A stretch of DNA of 44,561 bases from Planctomycetota bacterium. GTDB lineage: Bacteria; Planctomycetota; Phycisphaerae; Tepidisphaerales; Tepidisphaeraceae. Below are positions 13,359 through 28,630 of this stretch, piece by piece; the first letter of the stretch is position 1; every line of letters begins with the position of its first letter. A program made the translations under genes and the position numbers. The stretch lies in assembly GCA_039182125.1 (NCBI GenBank), contig JBCDCH010000030.1, forward strand, positions 1-44,561. Direction: 5' to 3'. The notes below the pieces were generated by a model that saw only the letters and a list, made by a program, of their open reading frames with translations, searched no databases and was not told the DNA's origin.

Positions 13359-16300
13359 TCAACTCTCGAAACCGAGTCGGCGGATTCTGCCGTTGATGTC
13401 GACGACGTAGATCGCACCGTCGATGCCCTGATCCATCATGACCAGTCGTCCTTCGGGATCAGTCAGCGATTCGATGCTGTTCACAGAGCCGTCGGGGTTG
13501 AGGATCATCGCTCGGACGTCGTTGCGGCCATAGTCGGTGAAGAAGAAGGCGTTTTCGTACAGGTCGGGGTAGTAGTTGGTTTCCCCGGTGTAGAAGTCGC
13601 CGGCCGTGACCGCGACCGCACCGTCGGCACCGCCGTGTCGTCCAGACCAGAGCGGGACGATAGCGGAGTTGTTGAGATAGAACTCCTGGGCGGCGGGCAG
13701 ATCACGGTAGCCGCGCGTCGGGTCATTGCCCGAGTCGGCCCCCTCGTACCACGGCCAGCCGAAGTTCTCGCCGCCGCCGTCAGAGAAGTCGACGACGTTG
13801 ATCTCTTCCCACGTACCCCAGCCGACATCGCCTAGGAAGATGTCGTTGGTCTCGGGGTGGATCGCCATGCGATAGGGGTTCCGCAGGCCCAGGGCGAAGA
13901 CCTTGGAGCGATTGGAGTCGAGATCGCCGTCGAAGAACGGGTTGTCCGCGAAGCCGCGGCCGGTGAGCGGGTCAACGCGTAGCAGCTTGCCGGAGAGGTT
14001 GTCCAGGTCCTGGACACGCTCGGACCGCGGGTCGACCGCGCCGTAGCTGGTCCCGTCGCCGTTGGAAATGTAGAGCGCGCCGTCGGTGCCGAAGCGGAGT
14101 GCGCCAATGGAGTGCGACTGGCTATCGGTGCCGAGGAAGTCCTGAACCCAGGTGCCGTCAGGGTTCTGGCCCGAGGGCGGCAGGTCGAAGTTCTGGGTCG
14201 AGTCGAGATCGGGTCGGGTGACGTGCTCCCAGGTGGAGTTCTTGCCGACGATGACCTCGCCCGAGCCGGCCTCGGCGATTTCGAAGCCGCTCTCGGCGGT
14301 GGCGGTGAGCTTGACCACGCGGGACGGCCGGTTGCCGCGCTCGTCGCGCCCGGCCAGGCCGAGCGTGTTGCCGTTGGCCTCCGGCGGGTCGTAGGTGTAG
14401 GCCGCGTAGACGTACGGCTGTTGCGGGAAGTCCGGATGGACTGCGAAGCCGATCAGCCCACGGTCGCGGACGTTGTTCACGTCGTCCCGCAGGTCGGCGA
14501 ACTGGGTGACCTGCCCGTCCTTGAAGAGCTTGATGATGCCTGACTTTTCGGCGATGAACATCCAGCCGTCGGACGTGTGATCGATCGCGGTCGGCTGGGT
14601 GAGGCCGGTGACGTAGTCTTCGAGCACGAAGTCGCCAGCGGTCGGGGCCGGGGGCGTTTCGGCGGGGTAGAGCTGGGTCGAGGGAATCACTTCCAGCGGG
14701 GTGTTGGGGCCTTGCCACAGCAGGCGCATTGCCGACTGGCCGCCGGCCTCGTAGTACTCGACGCGGATGTCATACTTCACGCCGGCCTCGAGGCTGATCT
14801 GGCCCTGGTGTGCGGTGTACGCCTGGTCGACCCACTGATTGATGATGAGGTTACCGTCGACCCAGAGCCGGACGCCGTCGTCGGACTCGGTGCGGAAGGT
14901 CCAAGTACCAGTGGTGCGTGGCTCGACCTGACCGTCCCAGCGGATGCTGAAGTCGTTCACGCCCATCGTCGGCACGGGCGCCTCGATGCCAAAGTCGAAG
15001 TCGATGGTTTCATCGACGCGGAGCACCTTGCGGCGGGTGAAGTCGCGGTTGTCGAAGTACTGTCCGAGCAGGCCGGTGCCGGTGCCGATGGGCGTGCCGT
15101 TGCTGCCGGAGTAGAGCTGCGACTGCGGGACGACTTCCTTCGATTGGCTGCTGCTGGACCACGAAAGGCTGGCCGATGCCCAGCCGGTGTTCTCACGGAA
15201 GCGCAGCTCGATGGGGACTTGCTGACCTTCGACGAGCGTGATTTGTCCGGTGTACTCGGGTGCGGGTGTCCAACTCGGGACGTCGATGATTTTGACGCCG
15301 TCGACGAACAGCTCGGCCGCGTCGTCGACGCTCAGGTGGAAGGTGTACGTCTCGCCGTAGCGCGGCTCGATGAAGCCGGACCAGACGACGCTGAAGTTGT
15401 CAGCAGGAATGTCGGCCCGCGGACTGCCGTCCTGCCAGCCGAAGTCGATACGCTGGTCCACGCGCTCGAAGACGTCGTTGGTGAACGTGTTGTCGTCGAA
15501 GTAAGTGCCGAGAAGCCCGTCGCCGCTGCCGCTGGCCGGAGGCTCGGGGGCGTCGACGCTGTACAGCTGTGACTGCGGAACGATTTGCTTCGGCTGCGAG
15601 GCGGAAGACCAGAACAAGCGTGCCTGTGCCCAGCCGCCGCCCTCATTGTAGTCGAGGCTGATGTCGTACCGCTGACCGGCTTCGAGGGTGATCGTGCCGA
15701 TGTACTCGGTCGCGGGCGTCCACTCGGGCTGGTCGATGAGCGTCTGGCCGTTGACCTTGAGCGTGACGCCGTCGTCGGCTTGGACGTGGAAGGTGTATTC
15801 CTCGGTGTAGAGCGGCTCGATCTGGCCCAGCCAGCGGACGCTGAACTGGTCAACGCCGACGCGGCTGTCGGGGCCGCCGGCCTGCCACTCGAAGTCGACC
15901 GTGGCGTCGATCCGCTCGAACTGCAGATCGGAGAACGTCTGACCGTCGTAGTACAGGCCACGCAAGCCGTCGCCAGTGCCGGAGGTCGGCGGAGCGTCGG
16001 GGGTGAAGAGCTGGCTGCGCGGCACGATCTCCTTGGCCTGGCGTGCGCTGCTCCACGAGAGCTTCGCCTTCGCCCAGCCGCTGCCCTCGATGAACTCCAT
16101 GCGCAGGTCGTACTCTTGGCCGGCCTGGAGGTTGATGGTGCCGGTGTACTCGTCGGCCGCGGTCCACGAGGGTTGATTGATCAGCAACTGCCCGTCGACC
16201 CAGAGCCGCACACCATCGTCGGCCTCGGCGTGGAACGTGTAGGTTTCGGTGTAGAGTGGCTTGACCGTGCCGGTCCATCGGACGCTGAAGTTGTCCTCGT

Positions 16301-17525
16301 TGAGTCGGGCCTCGGGCTTGTTGTCTTCCCACTCGAAGTCGATCCGCGGGTCGATGCGGGTAAACGCGAGGTCGTTGAACTCGGTGTCGCGGAAGTAGTC
16401 AGCCTGTAGTCCATCGCCTTCACCGACCGGCTGCGGTTCGTCGTCCTGGATCACGACGGTCGTGGTGCGCGGCGCGTCCAACGCACCGGGACCCGCGACC
16501 GCGTTGAGGCTCGTGTTGAACGTCTCGTCACCCTCGACCTCGGTGTCGTTGAGAATCGGAATGACGACGTTGGCCCGGACCTGTCCGTCCGCGAAGTTCA
16601 CGGTGCCGGTGACGTCGGTGTAGTCGAGGCCGGCTTTGGCGGAGGCGTCGACGACTTCGTAGTTGACGACGGCCGCGCCGTTCGAGCCGTCAATACGGAT
16701 GACCGGGACGGTGACGGTGCCTGCGTCTTCGTCCACGGTGTAGAGCGTGGTTTCCCAGCGGAACTTGCCGTCGGCTTCGGGGTTGGCCAGCGCTTTGATC
16801 TCGCCGCCGGAGATGCCCTGTTTGTAGATCTTGACATCGTCAATCGTGCCTTTAAAGAAGGCCGTGCCGATCGGATTGCCCTGCGTGCGTGCGCGACCGA
16901 CCGTCACGAATCCGCCCTCACTTGCGGGCATGTCCCACTCGACGCCGGCGCGGACGGTGGACTTTTGGCCGTTGATCCAGAGAGCGGTTTCCGAACCATC
17001 GTTCGTGATGGCGATGTGGTTCCACTGGTTGTCCGGTAGGGAGATCGCCGACTCGAACTCGAAGCTTGCTCCCTGCCCATCTCGAATCCAGACGGAGACG
17101 GTGTTGTCCGGTTCAAGATAAAGGTCGAGACCCGACTCGACGCTGTATCCAAACGGACTCACACCGTTGGTATGGTGGCTCAGCAGACCCTGACGCGCGA
17201 CGGTCGGCTCGGGACGGACCCACAAGCTGTGCGAGAAAGTCGGTCCCGTCACCACATTGTCAATGAGGACGTACTCGTTGACGCCATCGAACCGCAAGCC
17301 GTTGTTGAACCGCCCGTCGACACGGTCGACGTCTTCCATGTTGATCAGCGAGCCCGTGGAGCCGGCGACGGCGTTGGTCGCGATGGTGCCGGTGCTCTCG
17401 TCGAACTGCCAGTGCCCGGCCAGCGCGCTATCGAGCAGCCGGCGCTGTTCAAGCGTTTCGGTCACGGCACGATCGAGCGATGTACGGGGTGCGTCGGCAC
17501 AAAAGCGTTGGCTCTGGCGGGGCAT
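13359..17525 (-). CDS. Giant secreted LamG / Calx-beta / PA14x4 / sugar-dehydrogenase protein
   Basis: A 1388-residue multidomain surface or secreted protein. In order: an N-terminal LEQRRLL motif (25-31), the tag common in planctomycetal exported proteins; a LamG/concanavalin-like domain (33-241, with FDGVNEYV and GTIDDVKIYKQ); a Calx-beta domain (252-363); four tandem PA14 domains (370-511, 518-659, 667-811, 816-956) each with a DDGVRLWVDG-like core; and a glucose/sorbosone-dehydrogenase beta-propeller (966-1386, with HPDFPQQPYVY, ALGLRNPYRMAIHP and GDVGWG). PA14 domains usually bind carbohydrates, so the protein may dock on polysaccharide and oxidise a sugar. The start at 17525 has an AGGA Shine-Dalgarno 6 bases upstream; the longer frame lacks one. 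No C-terminal anchor is visible. Confidence 0.93.
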   Translation of the reverse strand: MPRQSQRFCADAPRTSLDRAVTETLEQRRLLDSALAGHWQFDESTGTIATNAVAGSTGSLINMEDVDRVDGRFNNGLRFDGVNEYVLIDNVVTGPTFSHSLWVRPEPTVARQGLLSHHTNGVSPFGYSVESGLDLYLEPDNTVSVWIRDGQGASFEFESAISLPDNQWNHIAITNDGSETALWINGQKSTVRAGVEWDMPASEGGFVTVGRARTQGNPIGTAFFKGTIDDVKIYKQGISGGEIKALANPEADGKFRWETTLYTVDEDAGTVTVPVIRIDGSNGAAVVNYEVVDASAKAGLDYTDVTGTVNFADGQVRANVVIPILNDTEVEGDETFNTSLNAVAGPGALDAPRTTTVVIQDDEPQPVGEGDGLQADYFRDTEFNDLAFTRIDPRIDFEWEDNKPEARLNEDNFSVRWTGTVKPLYTETYTFHAEADDGVRLWVDGQLLINQPSWTAADEYTGTINLQAGQEYDLRMEFIEGSGWAKAKLSWSSARQAKEIVPRSQLFTPDAPPTSGTGDGLRGLYYDGQTFSDLQFERIDATVDFEWQAGGPDSRVGVDQFSVRWLGQIEPLYTEEYTFHVQADDGVTLKVNGQTLIDQPEWTPATEYIGTITLEAGQRYDISLDYNEGGGWAQARLFWSSASQPKQIVPQSQLYSVDAPEPPASGSGDGLLGTYFDDNTFTNDVFERVDQRIDFGWQDGSPRADIPADNFSVVWSGFIEPRYGETYTFHLSVDDAAELFVDGVKIIDVPSWTPAPEYTGQITLVEGQQVPIELRFRENTGWASASLSWSSSSQSKEVVPQSQLYSGSNGTPIGTGTGLLGQYFDNRDFTRRKVLRVDETIDFDFGIEAPVPTMGVNDFSIRWDGQVEPRTTGTWTFRTESDDGVRLWVDGNLIINQWVDQAYTAHQGQISLEAGVKYDIRVEYYEAGGQSAMRLLWQGPNTPLEVIPSTQLYPAETPPAPTAGDFVLEDYVTGLTQPTAIDHTSDGWMFIAEKSGIIKLFKDGQVTQFADLRDDVNNVRDRGLIGFAVHPDFPQQPYVYAAYTYDPPEANGNTLGLAGRDERGNRPSRVVKLTATAESGFEIAEAGSGEVIVGKNSTWEHVTRPDLDSTQNFDLPPSGQNPDGTWVQDFLGTDSQSHSIGALRFGTDGALYISNGDGTSYGAVDPRSERVQDLDNLSGKLLRVDPLTGRGFADNPFFDGDLDSNRSKVFALGLRNPYRMAIHPETNDIFLGDVGWGTWEEINVVDFSDGGGENFGWPWYEGADSGNDPTRGYRDLPAAQEFYLNNSAIVPLWSGRHGGADGAVAVTAGDFYTGETNYYPDLYENAFFFTDYGRNDVRAMILNPDGSVNSIESLTDPEGRLVMMDQGIDGAIYVVDINGRIRRLGFES
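14658..16418 (-). repeat. Four tandem PA14-domain repeats (intragenic)
   Basis: Four diverged copies of about 140 codons each, at 15993-16418, 15549-15974, 15093-15527 and 14658-15080. All begin with a G-x-G-x-GL-x-Y/YF pattern and end in a VPxSQLY/F motif. Spacers are only about 5-8 codons. The first three copies are most alike; the fourth has lost the WSS motif and has a shifted WxxQAY segment, suggesting it is the oldest or functionally distinct copy. Confidence 0.85.
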
Positions 17526-17718
17526 TTTCGTCCTACGGGTTATCGTCAAGCTACAGAGTTCTCCCCAAACGACGGCGATCGCCGCGCCTGGCTGCACAGC
17601 TCACAAGAAACCATGGCACCACGTCGGTTGCAAGCAGATTTTTGAAGACCGCAAAGGCCAATAAACCGATGCGTGACTCTGATTCCGTTTGTGCGGTTTG
17701 GCGCGGTTGGTCGGTCGT

Positions 17719-22734: not shown

Positions 22735-23196
22735 TCACGCGCACATGCTTACGCGCGGGTCTTGCTTGACCTGTTTGGCTTCGTCAGCTTCGAGTCGTTC
22801 GAGAAGCATCGCCCACGTCTCGCGCTGATACCGCAGCACGTTCAGGGCTTCGTCGAGCGCTTCCTCGGAGTGATGGATGTTGGCTTCGACCAGCTTGAGG
22901 TAAGCGAAGTTGTAGAGCGCTTCGAGTTGCTTGCAGGTGACCGGGTCGTGCTCGGGTCGCAGGCCGTGGATGAGTTCCTGAACGATGCGCTGGACGCGTT
23001 TGAGCTTGTCGTGGCTCAGGTCGTAGTCGTGGTTGCGCAGGCCATGTCGCGCCTGTTCGCCGAACCGGAGTGCGCCGTCGAAGAGCATCAGTTGGATTCG
23101 CTCGGGAGACGCGGTCATGACCTGTGCACGCAGGTACTGGTTGACACCGTTCTTGGCGGCGGGAACTACAGCATGTCGGCGTGCTTGAGAACTCAT
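22735..23196 (-). CDS. fliS: Flagellar export chaperone FliS
   Basis: A 153-residue mostly helical protein. The N-terminal YLRAQVMTASPERIQLMLFDGALRF-like segment (about 22-46) with the TASPE and LMLFDGAL motifs is diagnostic of FliS, the cytoplasmic chaperone that caps flagellin's C-terminus before export. It is slightly longer than the usual 120-140 residues because of short extensions at both ends. It follows fliD by 69 bases on the same strand, the common fliD-fliS order. No Shine-Dalgarno precedes the ATG at 23196. Flagellin genes are not in the window. Confidence 0.93.
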   Translation of the reverse strand: MSSQARRHAVVPAAKNGVNQYLRAQVMTASPERIQLMLFDGALRFGEQARHGLRNHDYDLSHDKLKRVQRIVQELIHGLRPEHDPVTCKQLEALYNFAYLKLVEANIHHSEEALDEALNVLRYQRETWAMLLERLEADEAKQVKQDPRVSMCA

Positions 23197-23265: not shown

Positions 23266-26028
23266 TTAGCTGTCGCCACCACCGGTGCCACGGAAGTTAA
23301 ACGGCTGGAAGCTACTCACGGCCGCCTGTTGATCCTGCAGGCCAGCGATGGCGAGTTCCATGTTGAAGAACTGCCGTTCGAGCCGGGCACGCTTGCCGTC
23401 GAGCAGGGCGTTGAGCTGGTCGATGCGGTCTTCATAGCCGCGGGTGACTTCGTCGATCGCGTCGGCGGTTCGTTTGATGATGCCGTCGACCGGGTCGACG
23501 ATCCGGTCGAGCCTTTCTTCGATGAGCCAGCCGAGGCCGACGCCGACGACCGCCTCCTCGCCCTCGTCGTCGAGCTGAGTGGTCGTGGCCGTGAAGAGCC
23601 GTTCGACAGCCCGCGGGTCGTCGGCGTAGGCGGCGTTGAAGGTTTCCTCGTCGAACGTCAGTTCGCCGCCGTTTTCGATGTTCACGCCGATGTCGCCGAG
23701 CCGCTGGTATTGGCCGCCTTCGACGACACGGTCGCGCAGCAACGCGTACAACTCGGACTCGATCCGCTGCACCGCCGACTCGCCGAGCAACTGCCCGCGG
23801 CGACCGGTCTCGACGTCGAAATCGGTCAACGAGCGGATCTCGGAGATCGTGGTGTTGAACCCCTCGACAAGGGCTTTGAGTTGGTCCTTGACCGGGGTCG
23901 TGTCGGAAGCGACTTCGATGTTGATTGCCTGATCGCTCACGCCGGTGAGTTCGAAGGACACGCCGCGGACAGCGTCGCTGATCGTGTTGGACTTGCTGGA
24001 GATGGCGATCGCGTCGGCACCGCCGCCGATGTAGGCCAGCGCGTCACTCGCCTCGGATAGGTCGCGTGTGCGGAGACTGGTGGCGCCGCCGTCGACGAGT
24101 ACTTGCCCCGCGAGACCCGGTCGCCGGCCGGTGAGCGACAGTCGGAAGGGCGTGTTGCCGCCGTCGTTGAGCAACGTCGCGGCCACGCCGGCGTCGGATT
24201 CGTTGATCTTCGTGATGACCTCGTCGAGCGTGTCGGAGGCGGCGACTTCGATGGTCGTTTCGTAACTGCCGGTCAGCGTCGTCTCGCCGGTCTCGGCCTC
24301 GCCGGTGATCCGCAGGGCGCTGCCGATCTGGCCCTCGACGTCGTTGATCCGTAGCTGCGTCGCGCCGCCGGCGGTGTCGGTGACGGTGAAGCCGTCGCCA
24401 TTGTCGTTGAGTCCGATGCTCACGCCGAAGCTTGCGGCCGTGTCGTTGATCTTGGCGAACAGGTCATCGACGTTGGTGATGTCGTCCTCTTCGTCGATCA
24501 CGACTTCGAAGACGTCGCCGTTGGAGTTGGTGAACTCGAGCGTGCCGGCCCCGATGCCGTTGCCGCCGTCGAGGTCGGCCACCTCGGTGGTGCCGTAGAT
24601 CCACTGGCGTTGCAGGTTCGCGCCCTTGGCGTCGGGCGCGTTGGGATCGGTGTTTGGGGCGAAGGTGCCGAGCAGGCCGAGGTCGGCCGCGGTGGTGCCG
24701 CCGCGCTCGGCCATGGTGAGATCGCCGTTGCCGCCGGTGAGGTCGATCAGGTCGATGCCGTTGCCCGCGTCGTTGATCTGGGCTTCGACGCCGGCACCGG
24801 CATTGTTGATCGCGTCGATCAGTCCGGCGACGTCCTCGGCTTGCGTGTCGATGTTCGTGGTGACGCCGGCACGGTTGGTGACGGTCAGGCCGCCGCTCGT
24901 GTCAATGCCGTCGCCCCCGGCGAGGGACTGGATGAGCACGCTGCCGTTGCTCGCGACGATCTGCCGGCCGTTGAACGTGCCGGTCGTCGAGCTGCCGATC
25001 AGCCCGAGGTCTTGCACGGCCGACGAGCCGTTGGCGCTGGCAACGGACGTCTGCCCAATGCCCAGCGGCGGTATGGTCGTGTTGTCGTTGATGATCAGCC
25101 GGTTGCCGCTGATGGTCAGGGTCGCGTCGCCGCCAGCCGCGTCGTCGAACCTTTCGATCACGTCGCCGATCGTTTTCGCATCGGTCAGGTCGACGTCGAA
25201 GTTGCTGCCGTTGAGCAAGGTGACGGTAAGGTCGGCGTTGAGACCGACATCGACGCCGCGGCCATCGTTGAGACTCGAAAGGGTGGTGGTCTCGGCGAGG
25301 CCATCGAGTTGCGCGCCGGTGATGGTCGTGGCGGAGACGCGTTGATCGATGCCGAGCTCTTCGGCGGCGGTTCCGTCGATATCGCGGACGGCCAGTTGGC
25401 CGCTGCCGCCGGTGAAGTCGGTGAGCACGAGCTTGCCGTCCTCGATGTCGGCCTGCACGTTGACGTCGGTGTTGCGGCTGATGCGCAGGGCGAGTTCGTC
25501 GAGGTCTCGGACGCCCGCGGTGTCGATGACCGCCGAGTCGCCGGCGCGGTCGGTGATGCGGAACAGGCCGGCCGAGATGCCCTGACCGCCGCGTAGGTCG
25601 TTGATGCTCGACTCGGACCGCAGTCCCTTGCCGCCGAGTTCGAAGGTCAGATTGCCGATGCCGAGCGTGTCGGTCGGGGACGCGAAGCCTTGCGAAACGG
25701 TCTGCTGGCTCGACGCGAGTTGTGCGACGCGAACCTGGAAGCTGCCGGTGGCGGCGCGGTCGCTCGCGGTGGCGACAACGACGTCGTCGTTGCCGCTGGT
25801 CGCCGTGGCTGCCTGAAACCTCTGCGAAAGCTTGAGTTGCTGGCCGGCGAGGCGGAGCGAGGCAAGCCGTGTTTCGAGCGTGGTGTAGGCGAGGCGGCGC
25901 GACTCATTGCCGGCAATGCGTTGCTCGTACAAGGCACGCGGACGCGCCTCGATCTGCATGAGCTGCTCGATGATCTGCTGCGAGTTGATGCCGCTGGCTA
26001 GGCCAACGCCGGATGAAATCGTACCCAT
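23266..26028 (-). CDS. fliD: Flagellar hook-associated protein 2 (filament cap), unusually long
   Basis: A 920-residue filament-cap protein; typical FliD is about 450-680. Residues 1-110 are FliD_N (SSGVGLASGINSQQIIEQLM start, then heptad-like segments). Residues 143-574 hold four repeats of about 90 residues resembling flagellin hook IN modules, and 590-650 a fifth partial one. Residues about 660-900 are FliD_C, with AFxxxYNxTISEI-like VEGFNTTISEIRSL and a C-terminal coiled coil (about 850-905). It caps the growing filament and folds flagellin outside the cell. The start at 26028 is set by a GGAG 8 bases upstream; the longer open frame to 26787 is a shadow of the FAS1 gene. fliS follows. Confidence 0.95.
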   Translation of the reverse strand: MGTISSGVGLASGINSQQIIEQLMQIEARPRALYEQRIAGNESRRLAYTTLETRLASLRLAGQQLKLSQRFQAATATSGNDDVVVATASDRAATGSFQVRVAQLASSQQTVSQGFASPTDTLGIGNLTFELGGKGLRSESSINDLRGGQGISAGLFRITDRAGDSAVIDTAGVRDLDELALRISRNTDVNVQADIEDGKLVLTDFTGGSGQLAVRDIDGTAAEELGIDQRVSATTITGAQLDGLAETTTLSSLNDGRGVDVGLNADLTVTLLNGSNFDVDLTDAKTIGDVIERFDDAAGGDATLTISGNRLIINDNTTIPPLGIGQTSVASANGSSAVQDLGLIGSSTTGTFNGRQIVASNGSVLIQSLAGGDGIDTSGGLTVTNRAGVTTNIDTQAEDVAGLIDAINNAGAGVEAQINDAGNGIDLIDLTGGNGDLTMAERGGTTAADLGLLGTFAPNTDPNAPDAKGANLQRQWIYGTTEVADLDGGNGIGAGTLEFTNSNGDVFEVVIDEEDDITNVDDLFAKINDTAASFGVSIGLNDNGDGFTVTDTAGGATQLRINDVEGQIGSALRITGEAETGETTLTGSYETTIEVAASDTLDEVITKINESDAGVAATLLNDGGNTPFRLSLTGRRPGLAGQVLVDGGATSLRTRDLSEASDALAYIGGGADAIAISSKSNTISDAVRGVSFELTGVSDQAINIEVASDTTPVKDQLKALVEGFNTTISEIRSLTDFDVETGRRGQLLGESAVQRIESELYALLRDRVVEGGQYQRLGDIGVNIENGGELTFDEETFNAAYADDPRAVERLFTATTTQLDDEGEEAVVGVGLGWLIEERLDRIVDPVDGIIKRTADAIDEVTRGYEDRIDQLNALLDGKRARLERQFFNMELAIAGLQDQQAAVSSFQPFNFRGTGGGDS
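24307..25602 (-). repeat. Four tandem hook-IN-like repeats inside fliD
   Basis: Repeat units at residues 143-227, 250-345, 366-454 and 483-574. Each runs: a leucine-rich L-x-GGxGI/V opening, a short G-L-x-I/V-T strand, a hydrophobic helix ending in IxR/N-(x)N, a gl-x-L-x-D-tGG strand pair, and an ending A-x-DLGL(I)G. The second unit is the most degenerate in its opening. They are diverged in DNA, so they are old duplications rather than recent slippage. Confidence 0.8.
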
Positions 26029-26169: not shown

Positions 26170-26194
26170 CCAACTTTGCCGCTTCGATGCGTCC
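26170..26194 (+). promoter_or_regulatory. Candidate ECF-sigma promoter of the FAS1-sigma-anti-sigma operon
   Basis: CCAAC (26170-26174), a 15-base spacer and CGTCC (26190-26194) resemble the ECF-sigma pattern GGAAC-N15/16-CGTC. It sits about 85 bases upstream of the FAS1 ATG. Because the operon itself encodes an ECF sigma factor, self-activation is a natural guess. The rest of the 249-base gap between fliD and the FAS1 gene shows no gene. Confidence 0.35.
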
Positions 26195-26277
26195 GGCGAG
26201 GCGTCCGGTGCGAAGGAGAGGACAGAGCCACACGAGTGGCCGCCGCCGGCCGTCCACCCCACACCCCGGAGTCCCGC

Positions 26278-27264
26278 ATGTTCTCTTCCGCAACCACCCT
26301 TGCCGGCGTCGCGATCGTCGGCTTTCTCGTCCCGGTGACCTTCGCCGGCGACTGCGACGAGAAGACCACGCCGCAAAACACGAGCTTCATCGCCGCCGCC
26401 CACGATGCCGTGCCCTCGATCTTCGAGATCGCGTTCACCACGCCCGACTTCAGCACGCTCGCCGGACTGATCGCCGTGGCCGATCTCGACGAGCCGCTGA
26501 ACCAGAGTGGTGATTTCACCGTCTTCGCCCCGACCAACGACGCGTTCGAGGCACTGCCGGACGGCACGCTCACCGAGGTCATCAACGACAAAGACCTTCT
26601 GACGAAAATCCTGACCTACCACGTCGTTCCCGGCCGGATCTTCGCGGACGACATTCCGCAGGGTCGCACCGAGGTCGAAACCCTCGGCGGTGAGATATTG
26701 ATCATCGATCGGGCCGGCGCTGACATCCGCATCAATGGCAACCAGGTCGTGGCCGCCGATATCGAGGCGTCCAACGGCGTCGGCCACGTGATCGAAGGCG
26801 TGCTGCTCCCCGGAAAGGAGAAGCCGAAGAACACCCTCGACCTCTTCGACGTCTTGGAACGGACGAGCGAACTCTCCACCCTCGAGACAGCGGTCAAGGC
26901 GTCCGGCTTCGCCCGTTCGCTGGGCAACGATGGTCCGTACACCGTCTTCACGCCGACCAACGACGCGTTCGCTGCATTACCAAGCGGCACCGTCGAGTCG
27001 CTGCTTGATCACAGCAACGTCAACGACCTGCGGGCCGTGCTTCGTCTGCACATTCTCGCGGGTGAGGTCGATGCCCGTGGCGCGGTCGTCGCCGGTGAGG
27101 CCGAGAGTCGCGAGGGCAGCACGCTCCGCTTCGAGATCGAAGACGGCCAACTGTTCGTCGTCGGACCGACCAATCGTGCCAAGGTGATCAAGACCAACAT
27201 CACCGCCGAGAACGGCATCGCCCATGTCATCGACACGGTTCTTTTGCCGGGCGACTCGCACTGA
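26278..27264 (+). CDS. Secreted fasciclin (FAS1) domain protein, two domains
   Basis: A 328-residue exported protein. Residues 1-23 are a signal peptide (hydrophobic core then TFAGDCDEK). Two FAS1 domains follow, about 34-180 and 190-325, each with the H1 motif (TVFAPTNDAFEALP, TVFTPTNDAFAALP), a central Y/LH (ILTYHVVPG, VLRLHILAG) and the H2 motif ending in GVGHVIEGVLLP or GIAHVIDTVLLP. FAS1 domains mediate adhesion or matrix binding. The start at 26278 has GGAG 6 bases upstream. It is followed after 11 bases by an ECF sigma gene and then an anti-sigma gene, so expression is probably linked to that switch. Confidence 0.93.
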   Translation: MFSSATTLAGVAIVGFLVPVTFAGDCDEKTTPQNTSFIAAAHDAVPSIFEIAFTTPDFSTLAGLIAVADLDEPLNQSGDFTVFAPTNDAFEALPDGTLTEVINDKDLLTKILTYHVVPGRIFADDIPQGRTEVETLGGEILIIDRAGADIRINGNQVVAADIEASNGVGHVIEGVLLPGKEKPKNTLDLFDVLERTSELSTLETAVKASGFARSLGNDGPYTVFTPTNDAFAALPSGTVESLLDHSNVNDLRAVLRLHILAGEVDARGAVVAGEAESREGSTLRFEIEDGQLFVVGPTNRAKVIKTNITAENGIAHVIDTVLLPGDSH

Positions 27265-27275
27265 ACGGCTAAGCT

Positions 27276-27905
27276 GTGCTACTGGTGAACCCCGCCACAC
27301 CGAGTTCGACAACCGCGTCGCCGCCGCCGGTCCTGCCGGCGGTGGCCCGTGGCGTCGCGGGCGCGGCCGAGACGTGCATAGACCGCTACGGCGGGCTGAT
27401 CTGGTCCGTGGCCAAACGGTATTGTCAAAGTGCAGCCGATGCCGAGGACGCAGTGCAGGACGTGTTCATCGAGCTTTGGCGGAAGGCGGGGGATTTCGAT
27501 GAGCAACGCGGGACCGAGGCGGCGTTCGTATCGACCGTTGCCCGCCGCCGGCTGATTGATCATCTCCGCAAGCGCGGTCGTCGGAAAGACGTTGAGCAAC
27601 TTGGCGACGTGGCCGCCACCGACGGCGACGACCATGACGATGAGGCCGACGCTGCCCGGGAAGCACTGGGCGACCTGAACGACAGCCAACGGACCGTGAT
27701 CACGTTGACGGTGTTCGAGGGGCTGAGTTATCCGGAGATCGCCGAGAAGCTCGCGATCCCGCTGGGCACCGTCAAGGCACAGGCCCGACGCGGGTTTGCG
27801 GCGGTGCGTGACGCACTGACCCGACGGCGTGAGGCGGCGACCGTCCGGCGGGCGATGTTCCGACAGCAACGGGGGCTGCAACAGCCAAGGCTGGAGCAAA
27901 ACTGA
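27276..27905 (+). CDS. ECF-family RNA polymerase sigma factor
   Basis: A 209-residue sigma-70-family protein. Region 2 (about 33-100) shows YGGLIWSVAKRYCQSAADAEDAVQDVFIELW and the -10-recognition helix ending in RRRLIDHLRKR (quoted in parts); region 4 (about 130-185) has LNDSQRTVITLTVFEGLSYPEIAEKLAIPLGTVKAQ-type helix-turn-helix motifs. The architecture matches the SigK-like ECF group, which is normally held by a RskA-type membrane anti-sigma factor, encoded next. The start is GTG 27276 or GTG 27285; residues 1-30 are low-complexity and may be partly untranslated. The TGA overlaps the anti-sigma ATG (TGATG). Confidence 0.94.
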   Translation: MLLVNPATPSSTTASPPPVLPAVARGVAGAAETCIDRYGGLIWSVAKRYCQSAADAEDAVQDVFIELWRKAGDFDEQRGTEAAFVSTVARRRLIDHLRKRGRRKDVEQLGDVAATDGDDHDDEADAAREALGDLNDSQRTVITLTVFEGLSYPEIAEKLAIPLGTVKAQARRGFAAVRDALTRRREAATVRRAMFRQQRGLQQPRLEQN

Positions 27906-28630
27906 TGACCGACCAACCGACACAAAACGAACCGATGGTCGACGAGCCGACGCTCGCGGCGGTGTGGCGTAGTGGCGGGGACGCGCGTGTGGCACTGCCG
28001 ACGGGTCTGCGGGCCAAGCTCATCGAAGACGCACGGCTACACCTGCTCGCGCCGAAGTCGCTCCCGATCGGCGCCGCGACGTCACCATCGCCGTGGCTTG
28101 CGTGGTCCGGCTGGATCGCTGCCGCAGCGGCGGTGGTCGTCTTGCTGGTGTTCTTCGCGACAAGGCCGCAGCCGGAGGTGGCGGGCATCCCTGACCAGCC
28201 GGCGATCGAACTGGTCGAGCCGTTGGGATTCGAGGCGTTGCTCGCGGCTTGCGAGCTGGAGCCGGTCAAGCTCGACGTGCTGGCCATGGATGACGACTTC
28301 GATCAGGCCGAGGCTGAGGTTGCTTGGGACAACGAGCAACAGATCGGCGTGCTGCGTGTCCGAAATCTCCCGGCCAACGATGTCGTCGAGGCGCAGTACC
28401 AGCTTTGGATCGTCGACGCGACGCGCCCCGACGACAACGGCCGCAACCGTGTGGATGGCGGGGTGTTCGATGTCGCCCCGGAAACGTTGAATGTCGACGG
28501 TTGGTCGGAGATTCAGATCGACAGCAAGCTGCCGGTCGGCGACGCGGTCGGTTTCGCGATCACGCTCGAACCGCCCGGCGGAAGCGTCGTGAGTGAACTC
28601 GGGCCACGGCTGTTGATGATCACCGGCTGA
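27905..28630 (+). CDS. Membrane anti-sigma factor, RskA-like C-terminal domain
   Basis: A 241-residue single-pass membrane protein. The cytoplasmic N-terminal part (1-62) is short and contains no HxxxCxxC zinc site; a membrane helix spans about 66-86; the outer C-terminal domain (about 100-240) contains QYQLWIVDATRP and GGVFDVAP, typical of the anti-sigma-K factor C-terminal domain. It should bind and inhibit the sigma factor encoded just upstream until released by an outside signal or regulated proteolysis. The start overlaps the sigma stop (TGATG). Its last 11 bases overlap the convergent GNAT gene. Confidence 0.9.
   Translation: MTDQPTQNEPMVDEPTLAAVWRSGGDARVALPTGLRAKLIEDARLHLLAPKSLPIGAATSPSPWLAWSGWIAAAAAVVVLLVFFATRPQPEVAGIPDQPAIELVEPLGFEALLAACELEPVKLDVLAMDDDFDQAEAEVAWDNEQQIGVLRVRNLPANDVVEAQYQLWIVDATRPDDNGRNRVDGGVFDVAPETLNVDGWSEIQIDSKLPVGDAVGFAITLEPPGGSVVSELGPRLLMITG

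What the first reader, a model, noticed from the sequence alone, without database searches (positions are those of the whole stretch)
24307..25602. FliD enlarged by four tandem hook-IN-like repeats
Four repeats of about 90 residues (plus a partial fifth) lie between the conserved FliD ends, raising the length to 920 residues. Such an array would make an unusually large cap with long outward domains, perhaps for adhesion or for capping a thick filament. The repeats are diverged, so the design is old.
Basis: partly seen in the sequence, partly recalled or inferred. Interest (0 to 1): 0.6.

Follow-up and report, generated by a model that had tools for sequence, protein, structure and literature searches.

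The report
Flagellar cap with tandem D3-like domains
The protein that caps the growing bacterial flagellum carries four extra copies of one of its own outer domains in this bacterium, and the same module also appears in the protein ring on which the cap first sits, an ancient arrangement shared by many planctomycete bacteria.

Summary
Window 23266-26028 (-) encodes a 920-residue FliD whose middle carries four homologous units of 93-98 residues. The 'partial fifth' is the ancestral D3 domain with the Pfam hook-IN motif. A confident model (pLDDT 91.7) shows a normal FliD with extra D3-like domains inserted in its head.

It is not a peculiarity of this genome. In its class, 86 of 127 measured FliDs are 905-1254 aa and carry 3-7 strong repeats. 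Repeats keep their order between species and are as conserved as the D0-D1 core, so the design is old and constrained.

New here: the same module occurs in the junction protein FlgL (three copies in this genome). In 34 FliD/FlgL pairs, all 14 long FliDs pair with FlgL carrying 2-4 modules, and all 20 short ones with none. A FliD tree reduces this to one ancient event. Within the long lineage the two lengths still covary (contrast r 0.74, n=14).

The thick-filament and adhesion ideas gain no support. My preferred function is cap-head packing against the enlarged FlgL ring (inferred); anchoring a flagellar sheath is the main rival.

The parts
23266..26028 (-). fliD, 920 aa filament cap protein (HAP2)
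   Evidence: ORF and start; FliD_N and FliD_C over Pfam cut-offs; fold match to solved FliDs
25705..25995 (-). FliD_N, residues 12-108 (D0-D1 N helices and start of the head)
   Evidence: Pfam
25324..25614 (-). Repeat R1, residues 139-235
   Evidence: modelled alone with pLDDT 91.2, matches FliD D3 of Serratia and E. coli
24988..25281 (-). Repeat R2, residues 250-347
24661..24939 (-). Repeat R3, residues 364-456
24295..24588 (-). Repeat R4, residues 481-578
24052..24282 (-).
   Evidence: Pfam IN at E 2.6e-8 on this stretch; aligns to the Campylobacter FliD IN region
23335..24042 (-). FliD_C, residues 663-898 (D2 completion, D1 and D0 C helices)
   Evidence: Pfam; model
22735..23196 (-). fliS, flagellin export chaperone, directly downstream of fliD
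   Evidence: Pfam FliS E 1.7e-29

Best explanation
This is the flagellar filament cap protein FliD of a planctomycete lineage (most of the class, parts of other classes) whose head domain D3 was multiplied in tandem long ago. Four extra D3-like beta domains sit inside the head, between the first strands of D3 and the canonical IN part of D3, so each subunit carries an arm of about five D3-like domains above an ordinary D0-D1-D2 cap. Shown by computation: identity, repeat homology, fold, age, and the same module in FlgL. Inferred: the arms form a broad outer shell on the cap that packs against the equally enlarged FlgL ring on which the cap first docks, and then over the outer domains of the first flagellins; the D0-D1 part does the flagellin folding as in other bacteria. 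I put the identity and architecture at about 0.95 and the packing function at about 0.4; the figure below is for the whole statement.
For: Family: FliD_N and FliD_C over cut-off, fliS next door. Fold: model pLDDT 91.7, pTM 0.74; E. coli D1-D3 Z 21.4 over 334 residues, E. coli D2-D3 Z 18.4 at 1.8 A over 177 residues spanning model 73-709, which places the array inside the head. Single repeat R1 against solved structures: best rows are Vibrio FlaA outer domain (Z 8.1) and FliD D3 of Serratia (7.9), E. coli (7.4), Pseudomonas (7.1). Age: 127 class FliDs fall into length steps and all 86 of 900 aa or more carry 3-7 repeats of at least 40 bits, while 34 of the 41 shorter ones carry none, six carry one and one carries two. 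Positional orthology 1203 of 1520. Constraint: R1-R4 mean pairwise identity 0.40-0.46 against 0.34-0.42 for the D0-D1 parts in 32 class sequences, 0.38-0.44 against 0.34-0.44 in 70 others. FlgL link: in the own genome the repeat model rings, apart from one weak hit at E 0.002, only in FliD (4) and FlgL (3); FlgL repeats align to FliD repeats R1-R4 at 98.4-99.8% probability; 14 of 14 long FliDs pair with FlgL bearing 2-4 repeats and 20 of 20 short ones with none; within the long clade FliD and FlgL lengths covary (contrast r 0.74, sign-flip 79/5000) whereas FlgK does not (r 0.01). Precedent read in passages: in the Campylobacter cap-on-junction structure the FliD D4 domain lies between D3 and an FlgL subunit and FlgL has a bulky D2 (PMC12221982).
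Against: The FliD/FlgL co-occurrence is one split on the FliD tree (that branch has weak support, 74), so it is a single co-inherited event and no proof of contact. Length covariation rests on 14 genomes, with the largest pair (1973/1556 aa) having leverage; in the short clade FliD follows flagellin, not FlgL (r -0.06 with FlgL). No complex was modelled, so the direction of the arms is unknown. In Pseudomonas the D2-D3 head is dispensable for filament formation and motility (PMC8533109 section 9), so a large head need not serve assembly at all.
Confidence: 0.5

Rival explanations
1. Sheath-tip anchor. The array sits on top of the cap and touches the inner leaflet of a membranous flagellar sheath, coordinating sheath and filament growth, as proposed for the extra FliD domain of Vibrio.
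For: Vibrio and Helicobacter FliD carry extra head domains (D4, D4-D5); deleting Vibrio D4 gave empty sheath extensions while motility remained (PMC13106801, passages). Some planctomycetes are reported to have sheathed flagella (PMC7175336, passage). The array is strongly acidic (pI 4.05).
Against: No evidence that this genome or class has sheathed flagella. The rest of FliD is almost as acidic (pI 4.25). It does not explain why FlgL has the same modules.
Confidence: 0.2
2. Accretion without a specific job. The head is dispensable, so copies of D3 accumulated and persist as decoration.
For: Head removal or replacement, even by the four-domain Helicobacter head, is tolerated in Pseudomonas (PMC8533109). 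The count of strong repeats varies between 3 and 7 in the class.
Against: Repeats are as conserved as the core, keep positional identity, and no class member of the long type in the sample has fewer than three strong repeats except G001 with two.
Confidence: 0.15
3. Adhesion: the arms bind surfaces or glycans at the flagellar tip.
For: [quoted passage not shown] Flagellar outer domains are exposed.
Against: Conservation equals the core; the same module in the FlgL ring near the cell is hard to read as a tip adhesin; no convincing match to a binding domain among the rows shown, which is weak evidence.
Confidence: 0.1
4. Capping a thick filament: the cap is wide because flagellin outer domains are large.
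For: Across 30 family means FliD and flagellin lengths correlate (rho 0.75), and in the short-FliD clade contrasts give r 0.50 (221/5000). Giant flagellins making thick filaments are reported, and giant flagellins occur in planctomycetes too (PMC6248924, passages).
Against: Own flagellins are 442 (cut) and 499 aa open frames. Within the long clade r is 0.28, not significant; FliDs of 910-1055 aa occur with flagellins of about 480-515 aa.
Confidence: 0.1

Closest known systems
FliD D2-D3 head of E. coli, Salmonella, Pseudomonas, Serratia (PDB 5h5v, 5h5w, 5h5t, 5fhy, 5xlj)
   Same: D0-D1-D2 and one D3 domain superpose on the model; repeat R1 modelled alone has the D3 fold
   Different: One D3 only; proteins of roughly half the length
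Campylobacter FliD with D4 and a bulky FlgL D2 (6sih, 9gsx; PMC7316729, PMC12221982)
   Same: Enlarged FliD paired with enlarged FlgL, in contact in the solved cap-on-junction complex
   Different: D4 is inserted in the D1 helix bundle (PMC7316729 passage), not in D3; seven class relatives do have one extra repeat in their C-terminal part, the window protein does not
Helicobacter D4-D5 and Vibrio D4 FliD inserts (PMC13106801)
   Same: Extra head domains on the cap
   Different: Vibrio D4 is described as helical; no tandem array of D3 copies is described in the passages read
Pfam PF07196 Flagellin_IN
   Same: R5 matches it; R1-R4 are homologous to R5 in profile comparison
   Different: R1-R4 do not reach the Pfam cut-off
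Giant flagellins (PMC6248924)
   Same: Length growth of outer domains in flagellar axial proteins, also in planctomycetes
   Different: Growth is here in the cap and junction proteins, with ordinary flagellins in this genome

Membership tests
FliD / HAP2 filament cap | Pfam FliD_N and FliD_C over gathering scores, in this order at the two ends | tested here: met
   71.6 bits (cut-off 24.8) and 136.8 bits (25.4)
FliD / HAP2 filament cap | D0-D1-D2-D3 fold with the head inserted between the terminal helices | tested here: met
   Z 21.4 to E. coli D1-D3, Z 20.5 to the Salmonella cap chain
FliD / HAP2 filament cap | Flagellar gene neighbourhood | tested here: met
   fliS directly downstream
FliD / HAP2 filament cap | Pentameric cap at the filament tip, needed for filament growth | not testable with these tools
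   needs structure or genetics
NCBIfam FliD equivalogs (PRK08032 and others) | Curated equivalog score | tested here: not met
   best 137.4 bits against 387 for NF005955; all seven FliD equivalogs listed are below cut-off, so it is not filed under any of these narrower models
Pfam PF07196 Flagellin_IN, for R5 | score over 22.7 bits | tested here: met
   34.4 bits
Pfam PF07196 Flagellin_IN, for R1-R4 | score over 22.7 bits | tested here: not met
   R4 7.9 bits, R1-R3 no match
D3-like flagellar domain, for R1 | fold of FliD D3 | tested here: met
   Z 7.9 at 2.2 A over 83 residues to Serratia FliD 115-210, with the first 15 rows all flagellar proteins. These Z values lie near the level where common arrangements also appear; the profile result supports the reading
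Vibrio-type sheath-anchoring FliD domain | helical D4 on top of D3 and a sheathed flagellum | tested here: not met
   repeats are mostly strands with short helices; the sheath itself is not testable here

The most novel reading that the evidence does not exclude
Planctomycetota hold two ancient flagellar-tip architectures. In one, the cap (FliD) and the ring it docks on (FlgL) are built from the same tandem D3 module, so cap and junction mate through a shared module and change size together. Other phyla were not searched for it here.
Probability: 0.3. Interest if true: 0.6.

Novelty: new variant of a known kind. Interest (0 to 1): 0.42.

Why it matters
Cap and junction structures are solved only from a few bacteria with small or moderately enlarged heads. 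A lineage in which the cap head carries four to seven extra or repeated modules and the junction ring carries the same module is a natural experiment on what the FliD head is for, a question left open by the finding that the Pseudomonas head is dispensable. It also gives clear deletion and structure targets, and a warning that FliD length alone does not predict filament thickness.

Tried and rejected
Independent covariation of FliD and FlgL was my first reading of the phylum table (family means rho 0.73); the tree showed that the presence or absence of the arrays needs one change only, so I withdrew presence as independent evidence and kept only the contrasts within clades.

Global inflation of flagellar proteins was tested with FlgK: negative or no relation (rho -0.38 over 31 family means; r 0.01 in the long clade).

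Sequence similarity of the repeat profile to ubiquitin chains (best E 4.6e-5, with no single stretch passing on its own in that row) suggests a beta-grasp-like strand-strand-helix start; I did not treat it as homology.

The viral fold library gave only weak matches to phage and viral structural proteins with low TM-scores and was not used. A structure match that is absent is not counted as evidence.

Literature: no paper describing tandem D3/IN repeats in FliD, or planctomycete FliD architecture, appeared in the listings; the library lacks most subscription journals. Full texts were not read. Passages were read of PMC7316729, PMC12221982, PMC6248924, PMC5072837, PMC8533109 (section 9 whole), PMC10256154, PMC13106801, PMC6155364, PMC7175336.

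Sampling limits. Class survey: 134 of 198 genomes have FliD_C; I fetched 128 and had the window; 5 fragmentary ones (G058, G074, G104, G115, G156) were not fetched and 2 loci lacked the N-terminus, leaving 127. Phylum: 99 of 199 genomes have FliD_C; I chose 53 genomes (54 FliD systems) with readable FliD and FlgL for by hand, then 34 pairs; the others were dropped. Lengths are hit spans or open frames copied by hand. FlgL states of 40 class genomes were assigned by hand; G001 (708 aa, two strong repeats, FlgL open frame 832) was labelled long. Some class genomes have FlgL frames that fit neither class cleanly, for instance G163 545, G074 563, G019 219, G191 159, G153 299; none of these five entered.

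The repeat model was trained on the same proteins in which repeats were counted. The genome-contig scan used one peptide pattern from the repeat, so it favours relatives with that peptide: 280 relatives, 80 kept, 76 of them labelled Planctomycetota.

Full report
What is there. Pfam finds FliD_N at 12-108, FliD_C at 663-898 and one clear hook-IN motif at 587-628. fliS lies directly downstream at 22735-23196. The gene is fliD.

The repeats. Four units, R1 139-235, R2 250-347, R3 364-456 and R4 481-578, start 111, 114 and 117 residues apart. In shuffle tests five of the six pairs among R1-R4 beat all 500 shuffles and R2-R4 was reached by 7 of 500; comparisons with R5 by simple alignment were weak, two of them indistinguishable from chance. 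With profiles of 32 class sequences per unit, R1-R4 align to each other at 99.3-99.8% and to R5 at 84.5-94.5%. Pfam's IN model itself accepts R5 only.

Fold. With 70 sequences in the alignment the model has mean pLDDT 91.7 and pTM 0.74. It matches solved FliDs throughout; the E. coli D2-D3 head superposes at 1.8 A over 177 residues spanning model 73-709, which places residues about 137-580 as an insertion inside the head. R1 modelled alone (pLDDT 91.2) is closest to a Vibrio flagellin outer domain and to FliD D3 of several species, Z 7-8. The array is thus a set of extra D3-like domains.

How common and how old. In the class, 134 of 198 sampled genomes have FliD_C. For 127 proteins I could measure, lengths form steps: 9 under 600 aa, 22 at 666-708, 10 at 785-813 and 86 at 905 or more. 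All 86 have 3-7 strong repeats; of the other 41, 34 have none, six one, one two. Longer ones have five to seven repeats, up to 1254 aa, and seven carry one more repeat near the C-terminus. Of 80 named relatives, 76 are labelled Planctomycetota; 79 gave a full FliD, most with four repeats plus R5. Between 20 species a repeat's best partner has the same position in 1203 of 1520 cases. Repeats are as conserved as the D0-D1 parts, in a sample found through the C-terminal domain as well as in the sample found through the repeats.

The FlgL link. In the own genome the repeat model finds FliD (4), the junction protein FlgL (3), and one weak hit (E 0.002) in a very long frame. FlgL here is 633 aa and lies next to FlgK. 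FlgL repeats align to FliD repeats R1-R4 at 98.4-99.8%. In 61 class genomes 38 have the repeat at all. In 34 FliD/FlgL pairs taken from across the phylum, all 14 FliDs of 905 aa or more pair with an FlgL bearing 2-4 repeats, all 20 FliDs of 762 aa or less with an FlgL bearing none.

What the tree says. On a tree of 74 FliD cores without the repeats, long and short types are the two sides of one branch, with weak support (74). Both types occur within the class and within family f48, which suggests old co-existence or transfer of whole flagellar sets; I did not test which. The co-occurrence is one event. Within the long side, independent contrasts still tie FliD length to FlgL length (r 0.74, 79 of 5000 sign flips, n=14) and not to FlgK (r 0.01) or significantly to flagellin (r 0.28); within the short side FliD follows flagellin (r 0.50) and not FlgL. 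This is suggestive with small numbers.

Function. In Pseudomonas the FliD head is dispensable and a four-domain head from Helicobacter is tolerated (PMC8533109 section 9), so the array need not serve flagellin folding. In the Campylobacter cap-on-junction structure an extra FliD domain lies between D3 and FlgL, and FlgL has a bulky D2 (PMC12221982 passages). By that precedent, and because the same module sits in FlgL and the repeats are constrained, I favour packing of an enlarged cap head on an enlarged FlgL ring (about 0.4). The sheath-tip role proposed for Vibrio D4 (PMC13106801 passages) is the main rival, since some planctomycetes are reported to have sheaths (PMC7175336 passage). The thick-filament reading is disfavoured for this genome: its flagellin frames are 442 (cut by a contig end) and 499 aa. 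Adhesion is untested.

Novelty. FliDs with extra domains are known; a tandem array of D3 copies shared with FlgL was not described in any paper listed in my searches, which cover open-licence papers only and of which I read passages, not whole texts. I file it as a new variant of a known kind.

Noticed in passing
L310 (G000:C2:9900-12400): The own genome's FlgL is 633 aa with three repeats of the FliD family at 208-297, 319-406 and 413-506.
   Followed up: yes
L085, L091, L109, L113, L121, L125, L129 near residues 815-947: Seven class FliDs carry one more repeat near the C-terminus, close to where the query-to-Campylobacter FliD alignment breaks off. It may be the site of the Campylobacter D4 insert.
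   Followed up: partly
phylum survey: FlgK spans also fall in steps (about 446-450, 551-595, 637-652, 760-780, 800-955 residues), longest where FlgL is short.
   Followed up: partly
G287 contigs C25, C31 and C19: One genome holds two flagellar sets, with FliD/FlgL sizes of about 1461/1502 and 1088/959 aa (pairing of the first set is inferred).
   Followed up: partly
G000:C66 end and G000:C25 end: A flagellin gene seems broken at a contig end: C-terminal domain positions 3-52 match on C66 and 47-86 on C25.
   Followed up: no
window 26176-28630: A two-domain fasciclin protein (26176-27264 +) followed by an ECF-type sigma factor (27276-27905 +) and an RskA-like anti-sigma protein (27905-28630 +).
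   Followed up: no
window 13359-17597: A 1412-aa protein with laminin-G, Calx-beta, four PA14 stretches and a glucose/sorbosone dehydrogenase domain.
   Followed up: no
window, FliD residues 541-546: R4 holds a largely conserved N-D-N-G-D-G turn between two strands; it resembles a calcium-binding loop (recalled motif), untested.
   Followed up: no
alignment A2 profile: The repeat profile shows weak sequence similarity to ubiquitin chains, in line with a beta-grasp-like start of the domain.
   Followed up: no
L168, L201: Two loci are labelled Solirubrobacteraceae and Vicinamibacteraceae but carry planctomycete-type FliD; mislabelled or contaminated bins are likely.
   Followed up: no
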